From Streptomyces sp. WZ-12 (GTDB lineage: Bacteria > Actinomycetota > Actinomycetes > Streptomycetales > Streptomycetaceae): 64,000 nucleotides of DNA. The translations under genes were made by a program, and so were the position numbers. Below the pieces are notes generated by a model. The model was not told where the DNA came from. It saw only the letters and a program-made list of their open reading frames with translations, and did no database searches. Location of the stretch: contig NZ_CP118574.1 in NCBI RefSeq assembly GCF_028898845.1, positions 9,101,001 to 9,165,000 of the forward strand. The letters are read 5' to 3'. Shown here piece by piece: positions 2 to 45,341 of the stretch. Numbering within the stretch: the first letter of the stretch is position 1; every line of letters begins with the position of its first letter.

Positions 2-2590
2 GCCCCCGGACGGCTGGACCTGCTCGGCAGGACCTCCCACCCGCCCGCCGACCAGGTCGCCGGCGCCCTACGGACCCGGCTCGGCGACGCCGATGTGCAA
101 CGGCTCAGGCACCTGGCCGGCCAACGACGGACCACCCTGTTCCCGGTGCTGCTCACCGGTTTCGCGCTGGCGGTCGCCGGCCTGTCCGGGCAGCGCGACC
201 TGGTGATCGGCAGCCCGGTCGCCGGCCGCACCCGGGCGGAACTCGCCGGGCTGGTCGGCTGCTTCGTCAACCTGCTGCCGCTGCGCCTCGACCTGTCGGG
301 CAACGCCGGCTTCGGCACGCTCCTCGGCCGGGTGCGTGAGGTCGTCCGACAGGGCCTCGACGACCAGGAGGTCCCGTTCGAGCGGATCGTCGAGGCCGTG
401 CGCCCCGGGCGTTCGCTCGCCGAAACCCCGCTCGTCCAGGCCGCGTTCGCCTACCAGAACACCCCGGCGCCACGGGTGGAACTCCCCGGCCTGACCGCGA
501 CCGCGCTGCGCTCGCCCCCGGTGGCCGCGAAGTTCCCGCTCACCATGACCGTGTCCCCGCTGCCCAACGGACTGGAGCTGGAGCTGGAGTTCGACCGGTC
601 CCGGCTGCACGACGCCACGGCGGCCGAGATCCTGGCCAGGACGGTCGCCGTACTGCGCTCCGCGGCCGAGGCCCCGGACCCGCCCAGCGCGTCGACCCGG
701 CCACTCGCACCCGCGCCGACCGCGACCGCTGCCCCGGCGGAGGGTACCGGCTGTCTGCACCACGAGGTCGAGCGGATCGCCGCCGGGCAGCCGGACGCCG
801 TAGCGCTCAGCCACGGCCGTGACCAGCTCAGCTACCGGGAGCTCAACGCGCGGGCCGACCGGCTCGCCGCAGTGCTACGGGCCGGCGGCTGCGGACCGGA
901 AGACCTGGTCGGGCTGTGCGCCGAACCCTCGATCGACCTGGTGGTCGGGATGCTCGGCATCCTCAAAGCGGGCGCGGCCTACGTGCCCATGGACCCGACC
1001 GATCCGCCCCGGCGCCGCGCGGAGCTGGCCTGTACCGCGGGTATCCGGCTGCTGCTCACCCGGTCCACCGTGCCGCACCCACCGGAACCCGGCGCGGACA
1101 CCCTGCTGTTGGACCGGCCCGGGAGCTGGCCCGCACCGGCGGCACCCGCCCGGGTGCGGGTGCACCCGGCCAACCTCGCCTACACCGTGTTCACTTCGGG
1201 ATCCACCGGCGGCCCCAAGGGCGTGCTGGTCAGCCATGCGCAGGTGACCGCGGTGCTGGCCGCGTGCCGGACCGCGCTCCCCGTGACACGCGAACGCCAG
1301 ACCTGGGCGCTGACCCACTCCCCGGCGTTCGACTTCTCCGTGTGGGAGATCTGGGGCGCGCTGACCAGCGGGGCGAGGCTGGTGCTCGTTCCCCCGGACG
1401 CGGTCCGCGCACCGGACGAGCTGTGGGCGACGCTGCTGGCCGAACGCGTCGGCGTGCTCGGCCAGACCCCGAGCGCCTTCCGGGCCCTGTTGACCACCGC
1501 GCTGCGGACCGGGCCGGGCGGCCCACCGCTCTCCCTCGTGGTCCTCGGCGGCGAGTCCTGCGAAGTGGCCAGGCTCGCCCCCTGGTTCGACCGGTTCGGT
1601 GAGCGCGGGCCGGAGTTGGTCAACATGTTCGGCGTCACCGAGACCACGGTGCACGTCACCAGCCGCCGGCTGCGGCCGGCCGACCGGCACGGCCCGGTGG
1701 CCAGCCCGCTGGGGCGGGCGATTCCCGGACAGCACGTCGAGGTGCTCGACGACGAGGGACGTCCGCTGCCGATCGGCGGCCGGGGCGAACTGGCCGTCAG
1801 CGGGGCCGGGGTGGCCCGGGGCTACCTCGGCCGCCCCGGACTGACCGCCGACCGCTTCCGACCCGCCCCCGGCAGCCCGGGCGGCCGGCGCTACCACACC
1901 GGTGACCTCGTCCGGCGGCTCCCCGACGAACTGGACTACCTCGGCCGGACCGACAAGCAACTCTCCCTGCGCGGCTACCGCATCGAACCCGGCGAGATCG
2001 AAGCCGCCCTGCTGACGCACCCCGCCGTACGCGACTGCCTGGTGGTCGCCCACGGCGCGGGGGAGCGCCGCCGGCTCGTGGCCTACCTGGTCGCCGAGAG
2101 CGCCGGGCAGGCCCGGGACCTGACCACCGGCCCGCTCCGGAGCTTCCTGTCCGACCAGCTCCCGCACCATCTGATCCCGCGCCAGACGGTGCTGTTGCCC
2201 GCGCTCCCGCTGACCAGGAACGGCAAACTCGACGAGTCGGCCCTGCCCGCCCCGCCCCTGGAGCCCGACCGGCCGCGGAGCCGCCCGCCGGCCACCTTGA
2301 CCGAATCGACGCTCGCCGGGCTGGCCGCCGGGGTACTGGGCTGGCCGAGCCCGGACGGCATCGGCCGGCACGACAACTTCTTCGACCTGGGCGGGGATTC
2401 GCTGCAACTCACCCAGTTCCACTTCCGGATCGTCACCGCCTTCGCCATCGACCTCCCGATCCGCCGGGTGTACCAGGCACCCGACATCGCCGCGCTGGCC
2501 GAGGCGGTCGACCGGGCGCGCGCCGGGCAGCGGAGCGCGCTGATCCGGGAGGCACTGCGGCTGGCCGAGGCGGGGGAGGAGCCGACATGA
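2..2590 (+). CDS. blmVII: NRPS C-A-PCP module, 5'-truncated (Thr-like pocket)
   Basis: The reading frame is open from base 2, so the start lies left of the window. It encodes the C-terminal half of a condensation domain (visible residues 1-225), an adenylation domain (about 245-750; TSGSTG from residue 398, a YHTGD core and an NGK lysine near the end) and a PCP with LGGDS and the pantetheine Ser at residue 800. Pocket residues read by alignment to the GrsA positions are D-F-W-G-V-G-M-V-H-K. This is the threonine signature except for Gly where Asn is usual at position 278, so Thr is likely but not certain. A C-A-PCP Thr module directly before a ligase-ACP-C-A-PCP-C-A gene matches BlmVII of the bleomycin line. 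The stop overlaps the next ATG (ATGA), implying translational coupling. Confidence 0.9.
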   Translation, partial: APGRLDLLGRTSHPPADQVAGALRTRLGDADVQRLRHLAGQRRTTLFPVLLTGFALAVAGLSGQRDLVIGSPVAGRTRAELAGLVGCFVNLLPLRLDLSGNAGFGTLLGRVREVVRQGLDDQEVPFERIVEAVRPGRSLAETPLVQAAFAYQNTPAPRVELPGLTATALRSPPVAAKFPLTMTVSPLPNGLELELEFDRSRLHDATAAEILARTVAVLRSAAEAPDPPSASTRPLAPAPTATAAPAEGTGCLHHEVERIAAGQPDAVALSHGRDQLSYRELNARADRLAAVLRAGGCGPEDLVGLCAEPSIDLVVGMLGILKAGAAYVPMDPTDPPRRRAELACTAGIRLLLTRSTVPHPPEPGADTLLLDRPGSWPAPAAPARVRVHPANLAYTVFTSGSTGGPKGVLVSHAQVTAVLAACRTALPVTRERQTWALTHSPAFDFSVWEIWGALTSGARLVLVPPDAVRAPDELWATLLAERVGVLGQTPSAFRALLTTALRTGPGGPPLSLVVLGGESCEVARLAPWFDRFGERGPELVNMFGVTETTVHVTSRRLRPADRHGPVASPLGRAIPGQHVEVLDDEGRPLPIGGRGELAVSGAGVARGYLGRPGLTADRFRPAPGSPGGRRYHTGDLVRRLPDELDYLGRTDKQLSLRGYRIEPGEIEAALLTHPAVRDCLVVAHGAGERRRLVAYLVAESAGQARDLTTGPLRSFLSDQLPHHLIPRQTVLLPALPLTRNGKLDESALPAPPLEPDRPRSRPPATLTESTLAGLAAGVLGWPSPDGIGRHDNFFDLGGDSLQLTQFHFRIVTAFAIDLPIRRVYQAPDIAALAEAVDRARAGQRSALIREALRLAEAGEEPT

Positions 2591-5500
2591 CCACCCAGGC
2601 GGCCACCATCGTCGAGGTCGCGCGGCAGCACGCCGCGCGCACACCGCACCGCCCCGCCTACCTGTTCCTCGCCGACGGGGTCACGGAGACGGCCAGCCGG
2701 GACTTCGCCGCCGTCGACCTGCGGGCCCGGGCGATCGCCGCGGAACTGGTGGCGCGCGGATGCCGGGGCGAGCGGGTGCTCATCGCCCACCCCTCCGGCA
2801 TCGAGTACGTCGAATCCTTCCTGGGCTGTCTGTACGCGGGAAGCGTCGCGGTCCCCTGCGACTCCGGGCGGGGCGGGGCCGGGGCGGAACGGCTCGCCGC
2901 CCTCCGCGCGGACGCCCGGCCCGCGTTGGTGCTCTGCCGGGCCGAGGACGCTCCCGCGGCGCTGGTCGGACTGCCCAGGGCCGACGTCAGCGCCGTCCCC
3001 GACGCGGCCGCCGACGACTGGACCCCGCCCCCGACCGACCCCGCCGCGACCGCGTTCCTGCAGTACACCTCGGGCTCGACCCGAACACCGCGGGGCGTGC
3101 GGGTCAGCCACGCCAACGTGCTGAGCAACGAGCGCGCGATCCAACTCGCCTGCGGCAACGACCGGGACGCGACCTTCGTCGGCTGGCTCCCGCTCTTCCA
3201 CGACATGGGCCTGATCGCCAACGTGCTGCAACCGCTGTACCTGGGTTCCCGGTCGGTGCTGATGCCACCGGGCGCCTTCCTGCGGGCGCCGCTGAACTGG
3301 CTGCGGGCCATCGAGCGGTACCGGGCCAGGGTCAGCGGCGGCCCCAACTTCGCCTACGAGCTGTGCCTGCAACGCATCGACGAGGCCACCAGGGCCACCC
3401 TCGACCTGTCGGGCTGGGCGGTGGCCTACAACGGCGCGGAGCCGGTCCGGGACACCACGATGCGCCGCTTCAGTGCGGGATTTCGCACCGCCGGATTCGC
3501 GCCGGCCGCCCACTTCCCCTGCTACGGCCTCGCCGAGGCGACCCTGATCGTGACGGCGACGCCGTTCGACCGGCCGCCGACCTCGGTGCGCGCCGAACCC
3601 GCCGCCCTCAGGGCGGGCCGGGTCACCCCCGTGCGGGCGGACGAGCACGGCAGCACGCTCGTCTCCAGCGGCCTTCCGGTCGCGGGGACCGAGGTGCGGA
3701 TCGTCGACCCGGAGACCCGAACGACGCTGCCGGCCGGGCGGATCGGCGAGGTCTGGCTGCGCGGCGAGGGCATCGCGGGCGGCTACCACAACCGGCCCGA
3801 GGAGACCGAGGAGACCTTCGGCGCCCGCCTCGCCGACCCCCACCAGGGCCCCTACCTCCGCACCGGCGACCTCGGATTCCTCCTGGACGGCGGGCTCCAC
3901 CTCACCGGGCGGCGCAAGGACCTCCTCGTCATCCGGGGCGAGAACCACCACCCGCACGATCTGGAGCACACTGCGGAACGCGCGGATCCGGCGCTACGGC
4001 CCTCCTGCGGGGCCGCCTTCCCCGTGGACGTCGACGGCGTCGAACGGCTGGTGCTCTGCTACGAACTCGCCACGAGCCGAGGGGAGTTGGACCTGGTCGG
4101 GATCGCCGCCAGAGTACGGCAGGCGATCGCCACCCGGCACGGCATCGAGACCCACCGCCTGGTCTTCCTGCCCAAGGGAGCGGTGCCGAAGACGACGAGC
4201 GGCAAGGTCCGCAGGCAGCACTGCCGACAGTCCTATGTGGACGGCGAGTTGCCCGTCCTCGGCATCGTGGGCACCGGCCGGATCGAGATCCCCGACCTCC
4301 CGGGCCGCGACGCGCTCGACGCGACGGCACCGGGCGACCGGGCCGCGGTCCTGGCGACCGCGCTGGCCACCACCGCCTCGGCGCTCGCCGGTATCGGCGG
4401 GACACCGCCCAGGCCGGACGAGCCGTTGGTCCGGCTCGGACTGGATTCGTTGCGGGCCACGGAACTGCGGCACCGCGTGCAGCGACGGTACGGGGTGGAC
4501 ATCGGCGCCGAGGCCCTTGTCGACGGAGACAGCCCCCACGACCTCGCCCGGCGCATCCTGGCGGCCGACGCGACCCCGGCGGCCGCGCGGACGTCCGCGG
4601 GCGCGGCCGACGGCGACGGCCGGCTCGCGCTGACCGCGAACCAGGAAGCGCTGTGGTTCGAGCACGAGTTGGACCCCCGGGGCGCCGCGTACAACCTCTC
4701 CCGGGTGCTCAGGCTGGACGGACCGCTGGACGCACCGGCGCTGGACCGGGCACTGCGGACGCTCACCGCGCGGCATCCGGCACTGCGCACCACCTTCCCG
4801 GTCCAGGACGGGCGACCGTGGTGCCGGGTGGAACCGGAAGGCCCGCGGCTGCGCGTCATCGATGTGCCGGGGGAGTCGGCGGAGCACCTCGGGGCGCGGT
4901 TGCTGGAGATGGTGGAGCGGCCCTTCGACCTGGCCGGGGCCGTGCCGTTCACGGCGACGCTGCTGCGCCGCGACGCGCACACGCATCTGCTGGTGCTGGT
5001 CGCGCACCACCTCGTGCTGGACCTGTGGTCCTTCCTGGTGATGCTCGACGAACTGCACACCTGCTACCTCGCGGAGACCACCGGCATCCCGGAGGCGCTC
5101 GCCCCGGCGGGCGATCCGCAGGCCACCGCGCTGGCCGACGCCGAGGACTATGCCAACTCCCCGGCGTACGCACGGGACCTCGCGTACTGGCGCGAGACGC
5201 TGGCCGGCGCACCGACGGGCCTCGCCCTGCCCACCGTCCGCCCGCACCCGCGCCAACGCGATTTCCACGGCGCCACCGCCGCATTCCGACTGCCGTCGGA
5301 GCTGGCCAACGAGGTGCGCGCGCTGGCGAAGCGACGCGACTGCACGCTGTTCACCGTGCTGCTCGCGGCATACCGGGCGCTGCTGCACCGCTGCACCGGC
5401 CGGCCGGACCTCGTGCTGGGCACGCTGCTGGCCGGCCGGGACTCCGCCGAACTCGCCGATGCCGTCGGTTACTTCGTCAACCCGGTACCGCTCCGCTCCC

Positions 5501-8500
5501 GCTGCCCCCGCGGAACCCCGTTCGCGACCCTGCTCACGGACACCGCGGCGCTGCTGAGGCAGGTGCTCACCCACGGCAGGTACCCCTTCCGCCGCCTGGT
5601 CACCGACCTCGCCCCGGCCAGGGACACCGGTCGGGCGACGCTGGTGCAGAGCCAGTTCGTCCTCCAGCAGGACAACGGCGCACTGCGGGACGGCACCTTC
5701 GCCCTGGCACAGGAGACCGCCGGGCGCGCGGCGTTCGGCGCGGCGACCGCCTCCGCGGTCGAGGTGCCCCGCCGCTGGTCACAGCTCGACCTCAGCCTCA
5801 GCATGGCGCTGGTGGGCGGCGAGCTGACCGGCCGCTGGGAGTACCGGACCGGCCTGTTCGACGCGGACGCGGTGGCCGCGTTGTCGAAGCACCTCACCGA
5901 GGTGCTGAGGGCCGCCGTGGCGACGCCCGAACGCGCGGTGGACGACATCCCGTTGAGCGAGGACCTCACGGGGGACGCCGGGGCCGGACCGGTGCGACGC
6001 CGGCCCGACCCCGGCGGCCTGCACCACCTGGTGGCCGCCGCCGCGGCCGCCCGCCCGGACGCCACCGCCGTCCTCGCAGTCGCGGCGGACGGCACCACCG
6101 CGGGGCTGAGCTACGCGGCGCTGCAACGGGCGGCGACCACGGTCGCGGCCGGGCTGCGGGCGGCCGGCGCGGCGCCCGGCGAACCCGTCGCCGTACTGCA
6201 TCGGCGCGGCCGCGAACTGCCGATCGGCTACCTCGCCGTGCTGAACGCCGGGTGCGCCGTACTGCCGTTGGACCCGGCGGACCCACCGCCCCGGCACGCC
6301 GCGATGCTGGCCGACAGCGGTGCCAGGTTCCTGCTGACCGAGGAGCCCTTGTGGCACCGCACCGCGACCCTGCCCGCCCGGGTACTGCTCACCACGGCGC
6401 TGCTCGCCGCACGGCCGGAGTGCCCGTATGCGGCGCGCGTCCACCCCGAGCAGCCCGCCTACCTGCTCTACACCTCGGGTTCCACCGGAGCGCCGAAGGG
6501 GGTGCTGGTGCCGCACCGCGGCATCGTCAACCGGCTGGCGTGGATGCAGGAGGAGTACCAACTCGGCGTCGGGGAGCGGGTGCTGCACAAGACGTCCGTG
6601 GGTTTCGACGTCTCCTGGTGGGAGCTGTGCTGGCCGCTGATCGCCGGCGGCACCGTGGTGCTCGCCGCGCCCGGTGCGCACCGGGACCCGCTGGAACTGG
6701 TGCGGCTCATCGAACGGGCCCGGATCACCGCCGTCCATTTCGTGCCGAGCATGTTCGCCCCGTTCCTGTCCGAGGCGGCGCGCACCGCCACCGGGCGCTC
6801 GCCGCTGCGCCGGGTGCTGTGCAGCGGCGAGGCGCTGCCGGCCACCGCCAGGGAGCGGTTCTTCGAGCTGTTCGCCGCGCAGTTGCACAACCTCTACGGC
6901 CCGACCGAGGCTTCCGTCGACGTCACGGCCTGGCAGTGCGCACCGTCCGACACGGGACCGGTCCCGATCGGGCGGCCGATCAGCAACACCTCGGTCCGGG
7001 TGCTCGACGACCGGCTCCGCCCGGTGCCGGTGCCGGCGACCGGCGAGCTGTTCATCGGCGGGGACGGGCTGGCCACCGGCTACCTCCGACGGCCGGAGCA
7101 GACCGCGGCGGCGTTCCTGCCCGCTCCTCACGGGGGTCCGGGGAGCCGGATCTACCGCACCGGTGACCGGGCCCGGCGCCGTCCCGACGGCGCGCTCGTC
7201 TTCCTCGGCCGGACCGACCAGCAGGTGAAGATCGCCGGAATGCGGGTCGAACTCGGCGAGGTCGCCGAACTGTTGAGGGCGTTGCCCGGCGTGACCGACG
7301 CCGTCGCCCTCGTGCGCGACGGCAGACTGACCGGCTATGTCACCGGACCGGACGCCCCGCCCCCCGCCGTGCTGCGCGACCGGCTGCGCCGTTCGGTGCC
7401 CGGCCACCTGGTGCCGACGGATCTCGTGGCGGTCGAGGCATTGCCGGTCACCGCGAGCGGCAAGCTGGACCGACGGACCCTACCCGCACCGGAGGAGGAC
7501 CCCGACCGGGAACGGTCGACCACCCCGGTGCCCACCGTCGAACTCACCCCGACCGAACGGGCCTTGGCGGCCCTGTGGGAGGGGCACCTCGGCGGGACGG
7601 GGATCGACGTGCACACCGATTTCTTCACCCTCGGCGGCGACTCGATCCTGGCGATCCGGATCGTCGCTTCGGCGAGGGCGGCGGGATACGGCTTCACCGT
7701 CACCGAGCTGCTGGCCCACCCCAGCGTCGCGGAGCTGGCGGCGTATCTCGACTCCCGGCGGGAGACTGCCCCGCAGGAGCCCGAGTCGAGCGGGAAGACG
7801 GTGCCACCGTTCGGCCTGTGCCCGGCGCTGGCCGGCCGGCCGGGACTGGCCGACGCCTACCCGGTCTCGATGGCCCAGCAGGCCCTGCTGGTCCACCGGA
7901 GCGACGACCCCGGCTACGAGGTGTACGTGACCAGCATCGCGGTGGCGGCCCCCCTCGACCCGGCCGCACTGGAACAGGCCGTCGCCCACACCCTGGCCCA
8001 ACACCCCTACCTGCGCTCCTACTTCGACCTCACCGGCCGTGCCGAGCCGGTACAACTCGTGCCGCAGACCGTCCCGCGGCCGCCCGTCGAGGTGCTCGAC
8101 CAGCGCTGCGATCCCGCCCGCGACAAGAGCTTCGGGGCGTGGCTGCTCAGCGAGCGCAAGCGGCACTTCGACCTCGACCGCGGGCCGCTGGTGCGGTTCA
8201 CCGCGCACGACCACGGCACCGGCTTCCGGCTGACCGTCAGCAGCTTCGCGCTCGACGGCTGGTGCACCGCACTGGTGCTCACCGGGCTGCTCGCCGCGTA
8301 CCGGGCCGCACTGCGGGGCCGCCCGCCCGCCCCGGCCGTACTCCGCACCGGGTACGCGGACTTCGTCGCACTGGAACGCGCCGCCATCCGCTCACCGGAG
8401 CACCGCGCCTTCTGGGCGGCGGAGCTGCGCGGCGCCGCACCCTGCACGCTGCCCCGAGGAACACACCAACGACCGCCGGCACAGGGGCCGGTGTACCAGC

Positions 8501-15254: not shown

Positions 15255-15259
15255 GCGGC

Positions 15260-29993: not shown

Positions 29994-30006
29994 GGAGCAC
30001 CGCCCC

Positions 30007-36128: not shown

Positions 36129-37885
36129 CTGAGTCAACGCCGTCCGCCCGGCCGTCCACCTGGTCGCAGTTGCCGCTGCTGTGGAGACTCGGCCGGGGCA
36201 TGGGCGCGGCGATGGCCGGGCTGCTCGTCCTCGACCTGCTCTCCTACGGCATCGTGCTGGCTCAACCGCGCGTGGTGAAGTGGCTGTTGGACTCCGTCAC
36301 CACCGGCGCCAGCTTCGTGCCCGGCCTGGTGGCACTCAGCGCGGTGGCCGTGCTGTCCGGCGTGCTGCTGTTCACCAGCAACTACCTCCTGGGCCGGTTC
36401 GGGCAGCGGATCGTGCTCGGCGCGCGCTCCGACATGATCGGCGCGCTGCTGCGGGCCCGGGTCGTGACGGTGCAGCGGGAGCCCGTCGGCGAGGTGCTCT
36501 CCAGAGTCGGCAGCGACACCACGCTGCTGGAACGCGCCGTGGCCGAGGCGTTGGTCCGGGGCGCCGGCGCCCCGCTGGTACTGCTGGCCACCGTGCTGCT
36601 GATGGCGCTGACCGACCTGACGATGGTGCTGGTGCTGCTGGCGATCGTCCTCCTCGGAGCCGGCATCGAATGGCTGGTCCTGCGCCGGCTCTACCAGGCC
36701 ACCAAGGCGACACAGTCCAGCGTCGGCGAGATGCTCGCCGGGCTGCAACGGGTGCTCGTGGCGTTCCGCACGGTCAAGGCGTTCGGCACCGAGGCACACG
36801 AGACCCGCGGTGTCGTCGGCCGGGCCGAAGTCGCCTACCGGCAGGGCGTACGGGCGGCCGGCTGGTCCGCGCTGATCGGCGCCTGCAGCGGAGTGATCAT
36901 GGACGTGATGTTCCTGACCGCGCTGGGCATGGGCGCGGCGAAGATCGCCGCCGGCACACTGTCCTTCAGCGACCTGGTCGCCTTCCTGCTCTACGTCATG
37001 TACCTACGGGCCCCGGTCGGGGCGATGACCCAGGCGGCGAGCGCGGTCTCGGAGGGACTTGCCGCACTGGGCCGGATCCAGCGGGTCCTGGACGTCCCGG
37101 CCGAACCCGAGGCGGCGGACGCCGACGCGACACCGGCACCGGACCCGACCGCTGACCGGCCGTCCACCGGCATCGTGCTGGAGAAGGTGTCCGCGGGCTA
37201 CGACGGCAGCGCGGTCCTCAACGGGGTCTCGCTGCACGTGCCGCGTGGACTCACGGTCATCACCGGACCGTCCGGCATCGGCAAGACCACACTGCTCAAC
37301 CTCGTCGAACGGTTCCTGGACGCCGATCGGGGACGCGTGTTCCTCGACGGCGTCGACATCCGCGCCCTCCGCCGCTCCGAACTGCGCCGCCGGCTGGCCT
37401 ACGTGGAACAGGACGCCCCGCTGCTCGGCGCGACGATCCGACAGGCGGTGTGCTACGGGACCGACTGCACCGACGACGGGGAAGTGCTCGACACCCTGCG
37501 CGCCGTCGGGCTCGCCGAGTGGCTCGCCAGCCTGCCGCGCGGCCTGGACACCACGGTCGACGAGCGCGCCGTCTCGGTCTCCGGCGGGCAGCGCCAACGC
37601 CTGGCGGTGGCCCGCGCCCTGCTGCGCCGCGCCGACGTGCTCCTGTTGGACGAGGTGACCTCACAACTGGACGCCGACAGCGAGGAGATCCTGCTGCGCA
37701 CCATCGTCGACCAGTCCAGGGCCCGCACCGTGCTGGCGGTCACCCACCGCATCTCGGTGGCCCGCCAGGCAGACCTTGTGGTCGTACTCGACGAGGGACG
37801 GGTCCGGGGCGCCGGGCGGCACACCGAACTCCTGCGCTCGGACCCGCTGTACCGCCGGCTCGCCACCACCGAGGTCCCGCGATGA
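36125..37885 (+). CDS. ABC exporter half-transporter (TMD-NBD)
   Basis: This 586-residue type IV ABC exporter has six predicted membrane segments (about residues 28-320). The nucleotide-binding domain carries Walker A GPSGIGKTT, the signature VSGGQRQR, Walker B LLLDEVTS with the catalytic Glu, and an H-loop in AVTHRIS. All catalytic residues are present, so it can work as a homodimer. Its place inside the operon, translationally coupled to a hydroxylase gene, points to export of the finished glycopeptide or its acetylated form. The GTG start overlaps the previous TGA. Confidence 0.9.
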   Translation: MTESTPSARPSTWSQLPLLWRLGRGMGAAMAGLLVLDLLSYGIVLAQPRVVKWLLDSVTTGASFVPGLVALSAVAVLSGVLLFTSNYLLGRFGQRIVLGARSDMIGALLRARVVTVQREPVGEVLSRVGSDTTLLERAVAEALVRGAGAPLVLLATVLLMALTDLTMVLVLLAIVLLGAGIEWLVLRRLYQATKATQSSVGEMLAGLQRVLVAFRTVKAFGTEAHETRGVVGRAEVAYRQGVRAAGWSALIGACSGVIMDVMFLTALGMGAAKIAAGTLSFSDLVAFLLYVMYLRAPVGAMTQAASAVSEGLAALGRIQRVLDVPAEPEAADADATPAPDPTADRPSTGIVLEKVSAGYDGSAVLNGVSLHVPRGLTVITGPSGIGKTTLLNLVERFLDADRGRVFLDGVDIRALRRSELRRRLAYVEQDAPLLGATIRQAVCYGTDCTDDGEVLDTLRAVGLAEWLASLPRGLDTTVDERAVSVSGGQRQRLAVARALLRRADVLLLDEVTSQLDADSEEILLRTIVDQSRARTVLAVTHRISVARQADLVVVLDEGRVRGAGRHTELLRSDPLYRRLATTEVPR

Positions 37886-39636
37886 GGCGCGGGCCGCTGC
37901 GTCGGCTGCTCGCGGCGCGGGGCGGTCGTGATCGCACCGGGAAGGCGCCCGCCCCCAGCGGTGTTCCGCTGCTCCCGAGACATGGGCCACTCGACCTGTC
38001 CCCGAACCAGCGCCACGACTGGCTGCACTACCAGGAGTTCGGCGACACCCCGCTCTATGACGCCATGTTGCTGCGGCTGCGCGGACCACCGCGGGTACCC
38101 GCGCTGCGCACCGCACTGCGCGCGCTGCTGGCACGGCACGAATCGCTGCGCACCAGGTTCCCGGTGCTCGACGGGGCACCCCGACAGGTCATCGAGCCGA
38201 CGGACCGGATCTCCGTGCCGTTCGTCGACTTCAGCGCGCTGCCCACCGACGCGGACCGCGAGCGGGAACTCAGGGAACTGCACCGTGCCGCGCTGAGCGG
38301 GTACGCGCTCGACCGGCGCCCGCCCTGCCGGTTCGCCCTGGTCGGGTTCGCCCCCGCCGACCACCTGCTGGTGTTGTCGATCCCCCACATCGCGGCGGAC
38401 TTCTGGTCGATCCCGCTGCTCAGCCAGGAGCTGAGCGCTCTCTACCAGGCAGCATCGGCCGGCCGCCCGGCGGAGCCTCGCGCGCACGGCCATGACTACG
38501 CGGACTACGCCGCCTGGGAGGCCGCACAGTGGTCACCGCAGGCCCGGGCCGAGGAACTGTTGGGCTGGCAGCGCAGGCTCCGGGGGATCACCGCGCTGCC
38601 ACTGCCCGCCGACCACCCGAGAAGCACGGGCATACCGGCCCGCAGTTGGACGCACGCCGAGAACCTCGATCCCACCGTGAGCGATCGGCTCCGCGCGTGG
38701 AGCAGGCGGGAGAACGTCACGCTCTTCGTGACGCTGCTGGCGGCCTTCCACTGCCTGCTGGCCCGCGTCTGCGGCGTCGACACGATGGTCACCGCGTCCT
38801 CGTCGGCGAACCGTGGTAGCAACCTCGCGACGGCACTGGTGGGCCCCCTCTCGGACTACCTGGTCATACCCAACGACCTCACCGGCGACCCGGACTTCCG
38901 CGAGGTGCTGCACCGCACCAGTGACGCGGTGCTCAGGGCCCGCGACCGCAAGAACATGCCGCGCGACGACCTGGTGCAAGGTCTCGACCCGGCACGGGAG
39001 TTGAGACCGCACCCGCTCAAGCAGGTCTACTTCAACCTGCTGGCCGCCCCGCGCGCCGAGGCGCGACTGTCCTCGGGACTCTCGGCGACGCTGGTCAGCC
39101 TGGACGACGGGCCCCGCGGGCCGCACCTGGTCCCGGAGCACGCGGACCTCAGCGTCAACTGTTTCGACTACGGAGCCGGCCCGCTCGTGTGCCAACTCCG
39201 GTGTACCGCCGAGCTGTACACTGCCGGCGCCGGGCCGAGGTGGCTCCGCTGGTACGGCACGGTGGTGCGGCAGATCCTGGAACGCCCCGACATCCGGCTC
39301 TCCCGAATCCGTCCGCAGGCCGCGGGGGAGGCGATCACCCGGGCTGCCGTCCCGCGGCCGCGCACCCGATGCGCGGCCGACTGGATGGCGAAGAACGCCG
39401 GACGGATCGACGCCCGGCTGCTCGACATCTGGGCGCAGGCCGTCGGTCCGGGACACCGTTCGGGCGAATTCTTCCAGAACGGCAGGACCGACGTGGACGC
39501 CGCGGTGCTGCTGAAGCGGATCGAGGAAGAGCATGGTGTCCGGATTGCGTTGACGGACTTTCTGCGCGCGCCGACCCTCACCACCCTGGTGACCGCGTGG
39601 ACAGCCGACACACCACCGTCGAAGGAGCACGGATGA
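37882..39636 (+). CDS. blmXI: Discrete condensation protein with inactive carrier-like tail
   Basis: This is a 584-residue protein. Residues 30-480 form a condensation domain with PHIAADF at 168-174 in place of HHxxxDG, so the second His (169) and the Asp (173) are kept while the first His and the Gly are changed. About 500-575 aligns with a PCP (FFQNGRTDVDAAVLL), but the serine position holds Asp537, so pantetheine cannot be attached. Discrete C proteins BlmII and BlmXI are known from the bleomycin cluster; this is the longer of the two here. Possible roles are condensation with the terminal amine, which would explain the absence of a thioesterase, or assembly of the pyrimidine unit. The ATG overlaps the upstream stop. 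Confidence 0.78.
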   Translation: MRRGPLRRLLAARGGRDRTGKAPAPSGVPLLPRHGPLDLSPNQRHDWLHYQEFGDTPLYDAMLLRLRGPPRVPALRTALRALLARHESLRTRFPVLDGAPRQVIEPTDRISVPFVDFSALPTDADRERELRELHRAALSGYALDRRPPCRFALVGFAPADHLLVLSIPHIAADFWSIPLLSQELSALYQAASAGRPAEPRAHGHDYADYAAWEAAQWSPQARAEELLGWQRRLRGITALPLPADHPRSTGIPARSWTHAENLDPTVSDRLRAWSRRENVTLFVTLLAAFHCLLARVCGVDTMVTASSSANRGSNLATALVGPLSDYLVIPNDLTGDPDFREVLHRTSDAVLRARDRKNMPRDDLVQGLDPARELRPHPLKQVYFNLLAAPRAEARLSSGLSATLVSLDDGPRGPHLVPEHADLSVNCFDYGAGPLVCQLRCTAELYTAGAGPRWLRWYGTVVRQILERPDIRLSRIRPQAAGEAITRAAVPRPRTRCAADWMAKNAGRIDARLLDIWAQAVGPGHRSGEFFQNGRTDVDAAVLLKRIEEEHGVRIALTDFLRAPTLTTLVTAWTADTPPSKEHG

Positions 39637-40238
39637 CTGCTGGGAGCCGACGCGAGACCGCGTTGTGGACAGCGAGCAAGACCGGTGACAGCAAGGCGAT
39701 CGGCGATCTGGCGCCGACGGGAGAGGAGTTGGCGGCCAGGGACGCGGCGGGATGGACCGCACTGGACTGGGCGGCGGGCCACGGTGACGCGGCGACGGTC
39801 AGGGCCCTGCTGGCCGCGGGGGCGGACCCGCTGGCCACCGGCGAGGACGAACGGCCGCCGTACGAGATCGCGTTGGCGGCCGGCCACCGGGAAGCGGCCC
39901 GCATCCTGCGGGAGAGGGTGCGGCAGTCCACCGGCGAGGACCCGGCCTCCTCCTGGATGCCCTACTGCCGGGCCTATCCGCTCGATGCGCTGCGGGCCTA
40001 CCCCGACTGGCCCGCCGGGGCCGCGCAGCGCCCGGACGGCGCCCCCCTGCCGGGCGACACGCTCGTCTACCTGCACCACGACCTCACCGTCACCTCGGGG
40101 ATCTGGCCCGGCGAGGACATCGTGTTCGACGCCCGCACTCCGCGATGGGAGCGCTTCTGCCGGCAGGAACTGGGCTTCGCGGTGCCCGACGACCTCGACC
40201 TCATCACCGAAACGACCACCGGGAGCAACCATGGCTGA
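39633..40238 (+). CDS. Ankyrin-repeat protein
   Basis: This 201-residue protein has two to three ankyrin repeats in residues 8-95 (AGWTALDWAAGHGDAATVRALLAAGADP is cut here to its signature GHGDAATVRALLAAGAD). A C-terminal part of about 90 residues is rich in aromatic and acidic residues (PYCRAYPLDALRAYPDW, LHHDLTVTSGIW). I do not recognise the second half. AAGGAG lies five bases before the ATG, and the ATG overlaps the upstream stop. The 3' end overlaps the DUF5990-like gene by eight bases, so the two are probably made together and may interact. Ankyrin repeats mediate protein-protein contact, and a scaffolding or chaperone role for the assembly line is a guess. Confidence 0.75.
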   Translation: MTAGSRRETALWTASKTGDSKAIGDLAPTGEELAARDAAGWTALDWAAGHGDAATVRALLAAGADPLATGEDERPPYEIALAAGHREAARILRERVRQSTGEDPASSWMPYCRAYPLDALRAYPDWPAGAAQRPDGAPLPGDTLVYLHHDLTVTSGIWPGEDIVFDARTPRWERFCRQELGFAVPDDLDLITETTTGSNHG

Positions 40239-40626
40239 CCAGACCCTGCACGCGGTGGTGACCTGGGCCGACCCGACCGAGCACGCGGCGGGCGTCGGGC
40301 TGCAGGACACGTCGGGAGAACTGGTCGAGGGCGTCAGCGCCCCCGACGGTTCGGTCCGCTACGAGGTGGACCTCACCGTGCGCGAGAGCAGGGCGGCCGG
40401 ACCCCAACGCAACGACTTCGGCGGCCCGTTCGTCCACGGCACCCCCAAGGAACGCTTCCTCTACCTGAGCTTCAGGGGGCAGGGGGAGGAGCCGTGGCAG
40501 CGCCGCACCAAGATCATCCTGCCCGCGGCGGATGCGGTGGCGGGACAGGCGGAGATCCACGCGACGGTGGTCGACGCCGACCGGAGCCGGGCGCTTCTCG
40601 ACGGGGACGGCTGGTCCGCCGTGTAA
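40231..40626 (+). CDS. Small DUF5990-like protein
   Basis: This 131-residue protein has the features I associate with DUF5990: a VGLQ near the start, then GGPFVHG followed by RFLYLSF and a basic RRTKI strand. No catalytic motif, membrane segment or signal peptide is seen. It is coupled to the ankyrin gene upstream (eight-base overlap) and lies 23 bases ahead of a beta-hydroxylase-like gene. Its fold may be related to the extra tail on the MbtH-like protein at 30007. The function is unknown. Confidence 0.7.
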   Translation: MADQTLHAVVTWADPTEHAAGVGLQDTSGELVEGVSAPDGSVRYEVDLTVRESRAAGPQRNDFGGPFVHGTPKERFLYLSFRGQGEEPWQRRTKIILPAADAVAGQAEIHATVVDADRSRALLDGDGWSAV

Positions 40627-40649: not shown

Positions 40650-41633
40650 ATGACCGAGAACGAGAGTGCGGGCGCCCCCGGCACCGTCGGCACGCGCGCC
40701 TACCTGACGCAGATGATCCGGCGCTACTACGCGAGCCTGATCGACGCCTGGCACTACGCGGGCGAGACGGCGAAGGCCATGGAGTGCGCCAACGAGGCGG
40801 TCCGGCAAGGGGTTTGGGACCAGCCCCTGCAACGGGCCCGAGAGCACATCCCCGGGCTGCAAGCGCAACCGGTGCACGATCCCGGCGAGTTCTGGTTCAT
40901 CGGCTACCTGGAGGAGAACTACCCCCGGATCAGGGCGGAGGTCGAGCGGGTCCTCGACACCCCGCTCGATCCGGTGGTCTCGACCACCGACGACGCCGGA
41001 CTGATCCGCAAGGGCTCCTGGAAGCAGGCGCACCTCTACCGGGACGGCCGATGGCTCAGTCACGTCCGGGTACGGTTCCCGGTCACGGCGAGCATCGTGG
41101 AGAAGATCCCCGACGTCACCGAGCTCAGCCCGGGGGTGATCACGATGTCCAGGGTTTCCCCCGGCACCCACATCATGCCGCACTGCGGGCCGACGAACGG
41201 GCTGCTGCGGATCCACCTCCCGCTCATCGTGCCGGACGGCGTGAGCATCCGCGTCGCGGACCGGAAAATGCAGTGGCAGGAAGGGAAATGCCTGGTCTTC
41301 GACGACTCCTTCGAGCACGAGGTGTGGCACCGCGGCACCGAGGACCGGGTGGTGCTGATCCTCGACGTGCTCCACCCGGACCTGCACGGCGACCACCGGC
41401 AGCGCGTGCTCGGACGACGGCGGAACTTCGAGGAGCAGATCATCGAGTTCATGAGGGAACGCGGTGTGGAACGGGTGGCCATCCGCGACGGGGAGATCAC
41501 CCTCACCCCGGACGCCGGGGTGCGTGAACTGGTCGCGACCTACATGGCGGGCACCGGACTGACCGGCGTGCACCTCGACGGCGACCAGGTCCGTTGGGAA
41601 CGCCCGGACGACATACCGGGGCCACTGAAGTGA
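40650..41633 (+). CDS. Aspartyl/asparaginyl beta-hydroxylase-like oxygenase (second intact copy)
   Basis: ATG at 40650 follows AGGAGGGGG and gives 327 residues. The organisation is as in the 35199 paralogue. A helical N-terminal piece (RRYYASLIDAWHYAG) is followed by the oxygenase core with PHCGPTN (iron ligand His178), LRIHLPL and FEHEVWH (His223). The ligands for Fe(II) and 2-oxoglutarate look complete. Two intact copies plus the dead one in BlmF suggest duplication inside the cluster and different substrates. The stop overlaps the GTG of the aminotransferase gene, which may mean the two act on the same intermediate. Confidence 0.84.
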   Translation: MTENESAGAPGTVGTRAYLTQMIRRYYASLIDAWHYAGETAKAMECANEAVRQGVWDQPLQRAREHIPGLQAQPVHDPGEFWFIGYLEENYPRIRAEVERVLDTPLDPVVSTTDDAGLIRKGSWKQAHLYRDGRWLSHVRVRFPVTASIVEKIPDVTELSPGVITMSRVSPGTHIMPHCGPTNGLLRIHLPLIVPDGVSIRVADRKMQWQEGKCLVFDDSFEHEVWHRGTEDRVVLILDVLHPDLHGDHRQRVLGRRRNFEEQIIEFMRERGVERVAIRDGEITLTPDAGVRELVATYMAGTGLTGVHLDGDQVRWERPDDIPGPLK

Positions 41634-42787
41634 TCAACTTGTTCGAACCCGCCCTGGGCGAGGAGGAGTTGGCGGAAGTCCGTGCGGTGTTCGCCAGCGG
41701 ATGGCTGGGAAAGGGGACCAGGACCGGCGAGTTCGAAGCGGCGTTCGCCGCCCACCTCGGCGTGCCGGCCGACCGGCTCGTCTCGCTGAACTCCTGCACC
41801 GAGGGGCTGTTCCTGGCCGCGGAGCTGCTGGAGATCGGGCCGGGTGACGAGGTGGTGCTGCCCTCGGTGAGCTTCGTCGGCGCGGCGAACGCGGTGGCGG
41901 CGCGGGGCGGCACCCCCGTGTTCTGCGACGTCGATCCGCACACGCTCAACCCGAGCGTGGCCCATATCGCACCGCGGCTGACCGCGGCCACCCGCGCCGT
42001 CCTGGTGCTGCACTACGGCGGCTACCCAGGCGACATCGAGAACATCGCCGCGCTGTGCCGGGACCGCGGGATCCCGCTGATCGAGGACGCCGCCTGCGCG
42101 GTGGCTTCACGGGTATCAGCCACCGCCTGCGGCACGTTCGGCGACATCGGCCTGTGGAGCTTCGACCCGATGAAGATCCTTGTGACGGGCGACGGCGGCA
42201 TGCTCTACGCCAGGGACCCCGCGCTGGCCCAACGAGCCGCCGAACTATCCTACTTGGGGCTGCGACAGGTCAGCGGATACGCGCAGGCCAGCACCGGGGG
42301 ACGCTGGTGGGAGTTCCAGGTCGGGCCGTTCGGCCGCCGGTCGATCACCAACGACATCTCCTCGGCGATCGGGACGGTACAGCTCGCGAAGCTGCCGTCG
42401 TTCGTCCGCCGGCGACAGGAGATCACCCACTGGTACGACGACCGACTCGCGGGCGCGGCCGGACTGCGTCGCCCGGCGCCGCCACCACCGGGACACGAAT
42501 CCTCGTACTACTTCTACTGGGTACAGATGGACCGGCGCATCCGCGACGAGGTCGCCACCCGGCTGTACCGGCGCGGGATCTACACCAGCTTCCGCTACGC
42601 GCCGCTGCATCTGGTCAGCGCCTACGGAACGCAGCCGGCACTGCCCGGCGCGGAGCGCGCGGCGGCGGAGACCCTGTGCATCCCGCTGCACCAGGGACTC
42701 GACGACACCCAGCTCGACACGGTCGCCACCGAACTCCGCGCCGCCGTGGCCGAGGTGAGCGAACTGGCGGGGATCACGGCACCCTGA
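41630..42787 (+). CDS. DegT/DnrJ/EryC1-family aminotransferase
   Basis: This 385-residue PLP enzyme has a GWLGKGT start region, NSCTEGLFLAAELL for cofactor phosphate binding, IEDAACAVAS and the Schiff-base lysine Lys182 in DPMKILVTGDGG. The family usually transfers an amino group to 3- or 4-keto nucleotide sugars. No partner 4,6-dehydratase is in the window, though an RmlA-type gene lies 3 kb downstream. One option is an aminosugar such as the 4-amino-4,6-dideoxy-talose of tallysomycins. Another is transamination of a non-sugar intermediate. Coupling to the upstream hydroxylase (overlap) is a hint for the second option. Confidence 0.85.
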   Translation: MINLFEPALGEEELAEVRAVFASGWLGKGTRTGEFEAAFAAHLGVPADRLVSLNSCTEGLFLAAELLEIGPGDEVVLPSVSFVGAANAVAARGGTPVFCDVDPHTLNPSVAHIAPRLTAATRAVLVLHYGGYPGDIENIAALCRDRGIPLIEDAACAVASRVSATACGTFGDIGLWSFDPMKILVTGDGGMLYARDPALAQRAAELSYLGLRQVSGYAQASTGGRWWEFQVGPFGRRSITNDISSAIGTVQLAKLPSFVRRRQEITHWYDDRLAGAAGLRRPAPPPPGHESSYYFYWVQMDRRIRDEVATRLYRRGIYTSFRYAPLHLVSAYGTQPALPGAERAAAETLCIPLHQGLDDTQLDTVATELRAAVAEVSELAGITAP

Positions 42788-42813: not shown

Positions 42814-44394
42814 GTGAGCGTGACACGGAAACTCGCGAGACTGGCACTCGGCAGCGGGCAGGGGGTGCCCTGCCTGCGGGTGGGCGACCTGGACCGGGCC
42901 GTCCGCTTCTACCGTGACCAGTTGGGGTTCGACCAGGTCAGACTGCTCGGTGGCGCACACCCCCATGCGGCACTGTGCGCCGCCCAACACCGCGGCGGCA
43001 CCGTGCTGTTGACGCGGAGCGAGGAGGGTGCGGAAGCAACAGGCGGACCGGCCCGCCGCCAATCGGACCAGGCGTACTGGGACGCCGCCTTCTTCGTCGA
43101 CGACATCGATCGAGTGGCCGACGAACTGCGGACCCGCGGCGTCCGCATAGACGTGGGCATCGGCATCTCCACCCTCTCCGACCGCATGCTGGAGATCCGC
43201 GACGACTGGGGCAACAGACTGGCCTTCGCCGAGGCCGACGACGGATGGCGTCCGGCACTGCGGCAGCTCACCGAACGGGCAGTCCCCGCACGGGTTCGCA
43301 ACGCCGCACGCGACCGCCGGTTCGCACGGCAGGAACGCGCGGAGTACGCCGGGTTCGAGCGGTTCTACGCAAGCCTGCCGAGCCATCGCGACCCGGTGTA
43401 CATGTTCTTCACCAGCGGCCTGCTGCACTGGGTCATCGCCGCGGAAAAGCACATTCCGGCGGCGGTGAACCTGGTGCTGTTCGGCTCCGGGCTCACCGGC
43501 GAGGAGCAGCGGTGGCTGAACGAGAACCTCGACCGCCCGATGTACAACTCCACGCTGGAAATCGACGACAACACGGCGTGGGAATTCCTGTTCGACGCCA
43601 ACAAGACGAACTTCGGATACGTCGACATCGACTGTTTCGTGCTGGAGCCGACGGTCTTCTCCGACCTCGCCTCGTTCGACGAGGGCGTGGCGGTCAACGC
43701 GATCTGGACCTACCAGGCGGCCCCCGGCGTGCCGCTCGGCTGCACTCACCTGGTGTTCCTCAACGCCGCGGTGATCGCCGAACTACGCGCCAGGAAAAGG
43801 TATCTCTCCCCGGCAAACTACGACTGGCACGGCCGCACGGTGCCCCTGCTGCACCACCGGACCTACTGCCGCGTGCCCACTGCCGCCCAACGTCGGCTGC
43901 TGCTGGAAGTGTTGCCACCCGACGAGCGTGGACGCCCACAGGCCCCGGTCGAGGCCCCGTTCTTCGACACGCTGGTCGGGTACCAGATCGCCGCCGCGGC
44001 CACGGGCTACCGCACACACGCGGTGCGGCCCCTGGCGCACCGGACGCAGAACATGTTCACCGCGGCCACCAACGCGGGCAAACCGGTCTGGCAGCAGGAC
44101 CTTTCCGATGAACTGGTCCATGTCGGCGGCATCAGCTACTACGGCCGGTATTTTCACGCCTCCACATTCCGCAAGCTCTACCTGGCCGCCGAGTACGCTG
44201 TGCTGTGCGCATCGGTGGAAAGACTGCCGGCCGGCTACCGGGAACGGCAGGCCACCATCGAGCAGCAGCAACGCGACATCGGATTGGACCCCGCCGCGGC
44301 AGGAGAGTTGGTTCGTCAGCATCTGGTCACCGATCGGGGGCTCGACCCGAGCACTGCCGACCGGATCGTCGGCACGGCGAACCACACGCCCTGA
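42814..44394 (+). CDS. VOC (bleomycin-resistance fold) domain fused to GT-A-like domain
   Basis: GTG at 42814 has AAGGAG eight bases upstream and gives 526 residues. About 12-150 is a vicinal-oxygen-chelate/bleomycin-binding-type domain (PCLRVGDLDRAVRFYRDQLGF, LEIRDDWGN). The remainder (about 165-430) resembles a GT-A nucleotide-sugar transferase, with the DxD-like YVDIDCF near 268 and conserved aromatic stretches, followed by a helical tail. I know no standard protein of this composition. The VOC part could bind the glycopeptide and the second part could glycosylate it, or the gene could provide drug binding for resistance. Next to it lies the bleomycin acetyltransferase gene, which supports drug recognition. 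Confidence 0.72.
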   Translation: MSVTRKLARLALGSGQGVPCLRVGDLDRAVRFYRDQLGFDQVRLLGGAHPHAALCAAQHRGGTVLLTRSEEGAEATGGPARRQSDQAYWDAAFFVDDIDRVADELRTRGVRIDVGIGISTLSDRMLEIRDDWGNRLAFAEADDGWRPALRQLTERAVPARVRNAARDRRFARQERAEYAGFERFYASLPSHRDPVYMFFTSGLLHWVIAAEKHIPAAVNLVLFGSGLTGEEQRWLNENLDRPMYNSTLEIDDNTAWEFLFDANKTNFGYVDIDCFVLEPTVFSDLASFDEGVAVNAIWTYQAAPGVPLGCTHLVFLNAAVIAELRARKRYLSPANYDWHGRTVPLLHHRTYCRVPTAAQRRLLLEVLPPDERGRPQAPVEAPFFDTLVGYQIAAAATGYRTHAVRPLAHRTQNMFTAATNAGKPVWQQDLSDELVHVGGISYYGRYFHASTFRKLYLAAEYAVLCASVERLPAGYRERQATIEQQQRDIGLDPAAAGELVRQHLVTDRGLDPSTADRIVGTANHTP

Positions 44395-44456: not shown

Positions 44457-45341
44457 GTGAAACTGGCAACCCCCCGCCTCAGTCTGGCGCCGCTGGACCC
44501 CGCAGCAGACGCCGAAGGGCTGCACGCGGCGTACGGCGATCCGGAGGTCATGACCTGGTGGACCCGTCCGGCGACCGCCACCGCGGCCGAAACGCAGCGC
44601 CTGCTGGCCGAGGAGAACGCGCGCAGCGGCGCCATGCTGTGGACGGTCCGGGACGAGGGCGGGACGGTCGTGGGGCTGGTCGGCCTGCTGGGCGCGGTGG
44701 AGATTCCCGGACTGACCTGGATCCTGGCCAGGCACGCCTGGGGGCGGGGCTTCGCCACCGAAGCCGCGGCGGCGGCCATCGAGTACGCCTTCACGCACGC
44801 CGGACTCGACAGGGTGGAGGCATGGGTCGAGGCGAGCAACGCGCGGTCGCTCGCCGTCTGCCAACGCCTGGGCCTGGTCCGCCAGGGCACCCTGGCCCAG
44901 CGCTACGCTCACCGCACGCACCCCCACGAGGTGGCCGTGTTGGGCCTGACGAACCCGCAGCACAAACAGGAACCGACCCCCGTACTGCGCGTTGAACCGG
45001 TGCTCCCGGTGACCGACGTAGCGGCCACCCTCAGTCTGCTGCGAGCGGTGCTGTCCGGCCGGGTGTCCTTCTCGGTGGGCGAACCCGTCGAGGTCGCCGG
45101 GCTCGTACTGGGGCCGTGGAGCGTCGGGCCCAGCATCCGACTCGTCACCGCGTCGGGGGCGCAGAGCGCGCCGGTGACCCTGGCCCTCGACGCCGCCACC
45201 GAACTGGACGAGCTCCACCGACGAGCCGTCGCATCGGGGGCCGGACGGGTCGAGCCACCCACCGAACAGCCGTGGGGCGTACGCGAGTTCACGTTCGAGC
45301 TGCCCGAGGGCCACCGACTCGTCTTCAGCGCGCCGGCTTGA
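44457..45341 (+). CDS. blmB: Bleomycin N-acetyltransferase (self-resistance)
   Basis: GTG at 44457 follows GAAAGGG and gives 294 residues. Residues 1-165 are a GNAT acetyltransferase (RLSLAPLDP, GLTWILARHAWGRGFATEAAAA as the acetyl-CoA loop, SNARSLAVCQRLGL). About 175-294 is a second domain with the bleomycin-binding-protein fold (VEPVLPVTDVAATLSLLRAVL, FTFELPEGHRLVF). This two-domain layout and length match BlmB/BAT, which acetylates the beta-aminoalanine amine of metal-free bleomycin and blocks metal binding and DNA cleavage. It closes the operon and a hairpin covers its stop codon. No separate BlmA-type binding protein is visible in the window. Confidence 0.92.
   Translation: MKLATPRLSLAPLDPAADAEGLHAAYGDPEVMTWWTRPATATAAETQRLLAEENARSGAMLWTVRDEGGTVVGLVGLLGAVEIPGLTWILARHAWGRGFATEAAAAAIEYAFTHAGLDRVEAWVEASNARSLAVCQRLGLVRQGTLAQRYAHRTHPHEVAVLGLTNPQHKQEPTPVLRVEPVLPVTDVAATLSLLRAVLSGRVSFSVGEPVEVAGLVLGPWSVGPSIRLVTASGAQSAPVTLALDAATELDELHRRAVASGAGRVEPPTEQPWGVREFTFELPEGHRLVFSAPA

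What the first reader, a model, noticed from the sequence alone, without database searches (positions are those of the whole stretch)
2..45341. Bleomycin-family cluster recognised from domain order and sugar genes
The run C-A(Thr-like)-PCP / ligase-ACP-C-A(Ser)-PCP-C-A(Asn) / PCP-C / C-A(beta-Ala)-PCP-Cy-A(Cys)-PCP-Cy / dead A-PCP-Ox, together with HldE-like, GDP-mannose-epimerase-like, GT9, GT fusion, carbamoyltransferase, discrete PCP and a bleomycin acetyltransferase, is the bleomycin/tallysomycin signature. Pocket residues were read by eye and agree with the order of amino acids in bleomycin. This fixes the likely product class: a glycosylated, carbamoylated, bithiazole metal-binding peptide.
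Basis: partly seen in the sequence, partly recalled or inferred. Interest (0 to 1): 0.8.

Follow-up and report, generated by a model that had tools for sequence, protein, structure and literature searches.

The report
Tallysomycin-type drug cluster, acylase gene broken
This is a complete set of genes for a tallysomycin-like relative of the anticancer drug bleomycin; its relatives pair a fatty-acid starter with a fat-clipping enzyme, which suggests the drug is made in a masked form, and in this strain the unmasking gene has been split by a jumping gene.

Summary
The genes left of the window supply the further Asn, the His and the Ala-plus-polyketide modules. Compared protein by protein with the tallysomycin producer's genome and a genome carrying the bleomycin cluster, the locus is tallysomycin-type: its polyketide module lacks the C-methyltransferase, and it has the aminotransferase, glycosyltransferase and extra hydroxylase that fit a third, amino-sugar. 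It sits in a five-member clade next to tallysomycin. Adenylation pockets match tallysomycin and bleomycin closely except one residue at the beta-alanine module. New here: assembly starts with a fatty-acyl-AMP-ligase-like domain, and all five clade members carry a linked acylase resembling PvdQ, the enzyme that removes the fatty-acyl cap in pyoverdine biosynthesis. The likely scheme is an N-acylated inactive precursor unmasked after export. Here the acylase gene is split by a 902-bp insertion sequence present in eight copies, and no second such acylase was found, so mature product may not be made. The chemistry is inferred, not shown. The bleomycin and tallysomycin clusters themselves have no linked acylase. 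New member and mild variant of a known kind.

The parts
1..2590 (+). BlmVII/TlmVII-like NRPS, TubC-C-A(Thr)-PCP; gene starts at about -796 outside the window
2587..10794 (+). BlmVI-like NRPS: FAAL-like ligase-ACP-C-A(Ser)-PCP-C(degenerate)-A(Asn)
10781..12565 (+). BlmV-like PCP-C
12562..13551 (+). NDP-sugar epimerase (BlmG-like; gene letter recalled)
13548..15254 (+). BlmF-like fusion (letter recalled): sub-threshold GT2 match plus Asp/Arg beta-hydroxylase domain
15251..17161 (+). asparagine-synthetase-like protein
17178..25037 (+). BlmIV-like NRPS: C-A(beta-Ala-like, code VDAVVSLADK)-PCP-Cy-A(Cys)-PCP-Cy
25034..27670 (+). BlmIII-like: degenerate A-PCP-thiazoline oxidase (nitroreductase fold)
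27667..28713 (+). TauD-type dioxygenase, present in all 8 clusters compared
28710..29993 (+). TlmII/BlmII-like free-standing degenerate condensation domain; no match in Lentzea, NA02950 or M. haikouensis regions
   Evidence: (TlmII 4hvm, 641 bits)
30007..30582 (+). MbtH-like protein with C-terminal extension
30579..31733 (+). GT9 glycosyltransferase (BlmE-like; letter recalled)
31726..33351 (+). carbamoyltransferase (BlmD-like; letter recalled)
33348..33632 (+). free-standing PCP (BlmI-like)
33622..35115 (+). HldE-like sugar kinase/nucleotidyltransferase (BlmC-like; letter recalled)
35112..36128 (+). Asp/Arg beta-hydroxylase family protein 1, in all 8 clusters
36125..37885 (+). half-size ABC exporter, 68-85% in the other four clade members, no match in the tlm region, 37% in the blm region
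37882..39636 (+). free-standing C domain plus PCP-like domain without the carrier Ser; narrow distribution
39633..40238 (+). ankyrin-repeat protein, conserved in all 8 clusters
40264..40626 (+). DUF5990 protein (start approximate)
40650..41633 (+). Asp/Arg beta-hydroxylase family protein 2; ortholog in the 6 clusters with the amino-sugar genes, only hits on the place of hydroxylase 1 in the other 2
41630..42787 (+). DegT-type sugar aminotransferase (talosamine-type, inferred)
42814..44394 (+). VOC domain fused to a GT-A-like glycosyltransferase fold; candidate amino-sugar transferase
44457..45341 (+). bleomycin-family N-acetyltransferase (self-resistance)
45509..46414 (-). sugar nucleotidyltransferase family gene, 83% and adjacent in S. 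pinistramenti only; taken as right edge of the cluster

Best explanation
The locus encodes a tallysomycin-type bleomycin-family glycopeptide. BlmVI, V, X, IX-VIII, VII, IV and III equivalents build Ser-Asn-Asn-His-Ala-malonate-Thr-betaAla-Cys-Cys without the C-methyl group of bleomycin; Cy domains and the oxidase make the bithiazole; sugar genes add a gulose-carbamoylmannose-type disaccharide and a third amino-sugar. Assembly most likely starts with a fatty acyl group: the FAAL-like domain loads the ACP and the first C domain, whose catalytic HHxxxD is intact, acylates the Ser amine. That amine becomes the primary amine of beta-aminoalanine, a metal ligand, so the capped precursor would be inactive. 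After export, perhaps by the conserved ABC half-transporter, a secreted PvdQ-like acylase removes the cap. In this strain the acylase gene is split by an insertion sequence, so the last step is predicted to fail. Shown: gene content, order, domain classes, pockets, tree, insertion. Inferred: acyl cap, its position, deacylation, product structure.
For: Family: colinear counterparts in tlm and blm; pockets match. blm reference checked on one protein: its BlmB equals PDB 2zw4 at 288 of 289 aligned residues. Tallysomycin type: no methyltransferase hit in own, tlm, Lentzea, none by alignment length in S. pinistramenti; PF08242 in blm and A. rubida. Tallysomycin has an extra 4-amino-4,6-dideoxy-L-talose and lacks a methyl in the V moiety (PMC6270211 passages). 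Aminotransferase and GT-fusion genes in 6 of 8 clusters, no match in the blm and M. haikouensis regions. Tree: own in a five-member clade next to tlm, support 1.0, unrooted. Cap: VI N-terminus hits 7r7f (470 bits, a FAAL by recall), 3kxw (388), FadD23 and FadD32 AMP ligases (340, 315), against NRPS A domains at up to 170 and the first CoA ligase at 88 (43). VI-C1 HHxxxD intact in 4 of 4 clusters viewed. Acylase: the S. pinistramenti copy hits PvdQ at 379 bits and 5c9i at 365, penicillin G acylase at under 50 (54); copies of 67-80% linked in the 4 other clade members, own as two pieces; of 121 genus genomes only own and NA02950 exceed 41% (72). Precedent: PvdL acylates, PvdE most likely exports, PvdQ deacylates (PMC6206403 passages). 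Insertion: 16-bp perfect inverted repeats, 3-bp duplication, 8 copies.
Against: No metabolite data. The clusters of the known producers, blm and tlm, carry the FAAL domain but no linked acylase; their genomes have only unlinked 37-38% copies, and such copies are common, 53 of 121 genus genomes including own. In Lentzea and NA02950 the acylase is 7.5-8.3 kb from X and oppositely oriented. PDB similarity of VI-C1 does not single out starter-type C domains: CDA-C1 scores 88 bits against 165 for Txo1. The TauD dioxygenase that I first took as a tallysomycin marker is in blm too.
Confidence: 0.55

Rival explanations
1. Tallysomycin-type cluster, but the linked acylase is not a maturation enzyme: it is a signal-quenching or general amidase gene carried along, and the FAAL-ACP start is vestigial or makes a short-lived priming group removed on the assembly line.
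For: blm and tlm have no linked acylase although both have the FAAL domain. PvdQ itself also cleaves an acyl-homoserine lactone (PMC6206403 passages). Background copies of the family are common.
Against: Linked copies of 67% identity or more to the S. pinistramenti query in the other 4 of 4 clade members, over three genera (Streptomyces, Amycolatopsis, Lentzea), within 31-470 bp of X in own, S. pinistramenti and A. rubida (from match ends); none at that identity in the other 119 of 121 genus genomes.
Confidence: 0.35
2. The strain makes bleomycin itself or a bleomycin-type product; the extra sugar genes serve something else.
For: Pockets are close to bleomycin; identity to blm proteins is about as high as to tlm.
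Against: No methyltransferase domain found in the PKS; amino-sugar genes with tlm counterparts lie between hydroxylase 2 and the acetyltransferase; the tree puts it with tlm.
Confidence: 0.05
3. The cluster is a decaying, silent locus: the acylase insertion and the IX-VIII fusion are early signs of loss.
For: Insertion in the acylase; IX and VIII are one frame here and separate frames in the 7 relatives; W to A change in the beta-Ala pocket that the sister S. pinistramenti lacks.
Against: The other reading frames of the cluster translated without internal stops, and both acylase pieces still read open and remain 71-80% identical to the relative, so the insertion looks recent.
Confidence: 0.15

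Closest known systems
Tallysomycin cluster (tlm), Streptoalloteichus hindustanus
   Same: Gene order and nearly all genes at 46-75% identity, no PKS methyltransferase, aminotransferase plus GT fusion in the same place, second hydroxylase
   Different: Own has a linked acylase, the ABC half-transporter and the C-PCP gene, none with a counterpart in the tlm region; pocket residue 239 of the beta-Ala module is A, not W; IX and VIII are fused
   Same: Same assembly line, sugar, carbamoyl and resistance genes at 40-71%
   Different: blm has the C-methyltransferase and lacks the amino-sugar genes and second hydroxylase
Streptomyces pinistramenti and S. luteireticuli clusters
   Same: S. pinistramenti is the sister cluster, 71-90% with the same gene set and an uninterrupted acylase. 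S. luteireticuli BlmIII 82%, GT fusion 85% and C-PCP 82%; in strain ASG80 a published antiSMASH table calls one region tallysomycin 55% (PMC11596116, one passage)
   Different: S. pinistramenti: acylase not interrupted, beta-Ala code with W, IX and VIII in two frames. The S. luteireticuli cluster was not read here
Pyoverdine maturation (PvdL, PvdE, PvdQ)
   Same: Acyl-loading start, ABC exporter, PvdQ-like acylase
   Different: Different product, Gram-positive host; nothing tested biochemically here

Membership tests
Bleomycin family | Colinear NRPS-PKS-NRPS line with AL-ACP start and A-PCP-Ox end | tested here: met
Bleomycin family | Pocket order Ser, Asn, Asn, His, Ala, Thr, beta-Ala, Cys | tested here: met
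   beta-Ala code deviates at one position
Bleomycin family | Gulose/carbamoylmannose genes and BlmB-type acetyltransferase | tested here: met
   TlmB and BlmB models hit but under their cut-offs
Bleomycin family | Metal-binding glycopeptide product | not testable with these tools
   no metabolite data
Tallysomycin type | PKS module without C-methyltransferase | tested here: met
Tallysomycin type | Genes for a third amino-sugar, shared with tlm and absent from blm | tested here: met
   GT-A-like fold of the fusion; sugar identity inferred
Bleomycin type in the strict sense | C-methyltransferase in the PKS | tested here: not met
Zorbamycin type | Similarity to zbm genes | not tested
   no zbm cluster in hand; only the note that zbm has an acylase (PMC3777966 passages)
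PvdQ-type acyl-cap maturation | FAAL-type start domain in the assembly line | tested here: met
PvdQ-type acyl-cap maturation | Linked PvdQ-like acylase with Ntn Ser | tested here: met
   met by relatives, own copy is split
PvdQ-type acyl-cap maturation | Starter-type first C domain | tested here: inconclusive
PvdQ-type acyl-cap maturation | Acylated precursor and its deacylation | not testable with these tools
   needs chemistry

The most novel reading that the evidence does not exclude
Bleomycin-family drugs, at least in this clade, are built as N-acylated prodrugs that cannot form the metal site, giving protection during assembly, and are unmasked outside the cell by a dedicated PvdQ-like acylase; this strain is a natural insertion mutant of that step.
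Probability: 0.45. Interest if true: 0.8.

Novelty: new variant of a known kind. Interest (0 to 1): 0.5.

Why it matters
It would give a role to the FAAL-ACP start of the bleomycin assembly line and explain how producers protect themselves while making a DNA-cutting drug, by the same logic as pyoverdine. It also shows that the C-methyl and amino-sugar modules are mixed in nature: A. rubida has both the methyltransferase and the amino-sugar genes, a combination found here in neither the bleomycin nor the tallysomycin cluster, and NA02950 appears to have both as well.

Tried and rejected
Rejected: the TauD dioxygenase as a tallysomycin marker; it is in all 8 clusters. Hydroxylase 2 (40650-41633) tracks the amino-sugar genes instead (6 of 6 with, 0 of 2 without). 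I recall a tlmH hydroxylase in print but saw no text that says which gene it is.

Rejected: the genes right of 46414 (SerRS-like, sulfotransferase, SARP, double ABC, PAPS reductase) as cluster genes; no counterpart in the 7 other cluster regions apart from 30-32% ABC hits.

Led nowhere: the Alteromonas pAMDE1 cluster. Four Alteromonas plasmid records matched the acylase but were not among the 12 of 91 rows listed, and no Alteromonas row was listed, so its acylase was not read. AlphaFold of the TlmII-like protein was poor (pLDDT 59) and not used. One PDB search used a wrong frame and was repeated. Two review or cluster papers (Galm 2011; zorbamycin 2009) are not held, so earlier discussion of the AL-ACP domains or the acylase there could not be checked. 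Searches that listed no report of an acylase-prodrug route for bleomycin; this covers that library only. A relatives search got no answer and was replaced by a genus search with HldE (matches in 3 of 199 genomes, own included). A search for Ble-type binding-protein domains in the genome gave 10 weak hits and no answer on a drug-binding protein. Passages of PMC8787198, PMC9120177 and PMC11775670 were seen and not used.

Left out before counts: 12 of 28 BlmIII hits went into alignment A1; 54 of 63 GT-fusion hits were aligned; the Anaerolineae locus L012 was not used.

Full report
Setting. The window is C1:9101001-9165000 of a 9.55-Mb, two-contig genome; C1 is 9,169,400 bases, so the cluster lies near its right end. 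I fetched 60 kb left of the window. Negative numbers below are left of position 1 (L005 position = number + 20000).

The assembly line. Left of the window lie C-A-PCP-C-A-PCP (-14945 to -8526) and one long frame with C-A-PCP-KS-AT-KR-ACP (-8529 to -793); then TubC-C-A-PCP (-796 to 2590). In the window follow the BlmVI, V, IV and III equivalents. Pocket codes read Asn, His, Ala, Thr, Ser, Asn, beta-Ala-like, Cys, and a degenerate last A domain; they equal those of the tallysomycin and bleomycin clusters or differ by conservative single changes, with one larger change: A for W at position 239 of the first A domain of IV, shared by M. haikouensis and not by the other six clusters (names of codes recalled).

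References. The tallysomycin producer S. hindustanus was fetched by name. G056, unnamed, carries the bleomycin cluster: its acetyltransferase equals PDB 2zw4, the bleomycin acetyltransferase, at 288 of 289 aligned residues; only this protein was checked. Own proteins are 46-75% identical to tlm counterparts and 40-71% to blm ones; the ABC and C-PCP genes have no counterpart in the tlm region.

Type. In the PKS, PF08242 methyltransferase is found in blm and A. rubida and not in own, tlm or Lentzea; an inserted stretch of about that size is seen in NA02950 and M. haikouensis and not in S. pinistramenti. BlmVIII is listed as carrying a C-methyltransferase (PMC2613160 passages), and tallysomycin lacks a methyl in the V moiety and has an extra 4-amino-4,6-dideoxy-L-talose (PMC6270211 passages). 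The DegT aminotransferase and the fusion at 42814-44394 are in 6 of 8 clusters (own, tlm, S. pinistramenti, A. rubida in place; Lentzea and NA02950 elsewhere) with no match in the blm and M. haikouensis regions. The fusion models confidently (pLDDT 90) as a VOC domain plus a GT-like domain; Foldseek matches FosB, TioX and TnmS1 for the first and B3GalT6, glycogenin and GlyE for the second, the latter over part of the chain and with modest TM-scores. Sugar identity is inferred. An unrooted tree of 11 proteins (11,470 columns) puts own with S. pinistramenti, next to A. rubida, Lentzea and NA02950, and this clade next to tlm, all with support 1.0. Lentzea and NA02950 are sisters yet differ in the methyltransferase, so that domain has come or gone more than once.

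The acylase. Forty bases before the X gene ends a penicillin-amidase-family gene. The uninterrupted S. pinistramenti relative is PvdQ-like: 379 bits to PvdQ, 365 to 5c9i ('protein related to penicillin acylase'), under 50 to penicillin G acylase; its Ser263 aligns with the first residue of the PvdQ beta chain. In own the gene is in two pieces: the part equivalent to residues 1-114, 71% identical, from -18358, and the part equivalent to 111-822, 80% identical, from -17123. Between them is a 902-bp element with a DDE transposase, perfect 16-bp inverted repeats and a 3-bp target duplication, present in eight full-length copies at about 100% identity in the genome. The apparent signal sequence (by eye) lies on the first piece and the catalytic Ser on the second, so an export-ready enzyme should not be made. 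No other acylase of this type reached the thresholds in the genome.

Distribution. Relative to the S. pinistramenti query, copies at 67-80% identity are linked to the cluster in the four other clade members, own counted as pieces. By match ends they lie 31-40 bp before X in own and S. pinistramenti and 470 bp in A. rubida; in Lentzea and NA02950 they are 7.5-8.3 kb away and reversed. The tlm and blm strains have only unlinked 37-38% copies, and such copies occur in 53 of 121 genus genomes (own included), so they say little. M. haikouensis has a 34-38% copy about 16 kb upstream of X, next to an ABC gene; whether it belongs is not shown. Zorbamycin's cluster also has an acylase per PMC3777966 (passage); its family was not checked.

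Mechanism. The first domain of VI is FAAL-like: 470 bits to 7r7f (a FAAL by recall), 340 and 315 to the AMP ligases FadD23 and FadD32, up to 170 to NRPS A domains, 88 to the first CoA ligase. The next C domain keeps HHxxxD in the four clusters viewed. In pyoverdine synthesis PvdL puts a myristoyl-type group on the first amino acid, PvdE most likely exports, and PvdQ removes the cap (PMC6206403 passages). The ABC half-transporter at 36125-37885 is kept in the five clade members (68-85%) and has no match in the tlm region. The primary amine of beta-aminoalanine is a proposed metal ligand (PMC6270211 passages), and BlmB/TlmB protect by acetylating the metal-free drug (PMC6283892 passage). That this amine is the Ser amine rests on recalled precursor studies. 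An acyl cap there would keep the product harmless to the producer until export. This is an inference from parts and precedent; the C-domain class is undecided.

Verdict. Real, correctly read, ordinary in its main lines: a new tallysomycin-type cluster. The added value is the acyl-cap hypothesis, the natural acylase break, and the mixing of methyl and amino-sugar modules across relatives.

Noticed in passing
L005:1984-2885 (window -18016 to -17115): 902-bp insertion sequence, eight full-length copies in the genome, three of them on contig C2
   Followed up: yes
window -8529 to -793: IX and VIII equivalents form one frame here; separate frames in the 7 relatives
   Followed up: partly
window 47175-55885: Seryl-tRNA-synthetase-like gene, sulfotransferase, SARP-type regulator, double ABC exporter and PAPS-reductase-like gene side by side; not conserved with the cluster, perhaps a separate small pathway
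   Followed up: partly
window 37882-39636: Free-standing C domain with a PCP-like tail lacking the carrier Ser; three close database relatives besides itself, all Streptomyces, plus S. pinistramenti
   Followed up: partly
window -59997 to -38334: Another set of very large NRPS-sized frames about 40 kb to the left
   Followed up: no
A. rubida L017; NA02950 L035-L036: PKS with methyltransferase (NA02950 judged from an MT-sized insertion only) together with amino-sugar genes: a combination in neither the blm nor the tlm cluster
   Followed up: partly
window 19269-19289: A instead of W at pocket position 239 of the beta-Ala A domain, not in the sister cluster
   Followed up: partly
M. haikouensis L021-L024: Divergent family member: different pocket codes in VII and IX, no match for HldE, the epimerase or the TlmII-like gene
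   Followed up: no
L006 (window 66911-68293): Reading frame that looks by eye like an IS110-type transposase near the contig end
   Followed up: no
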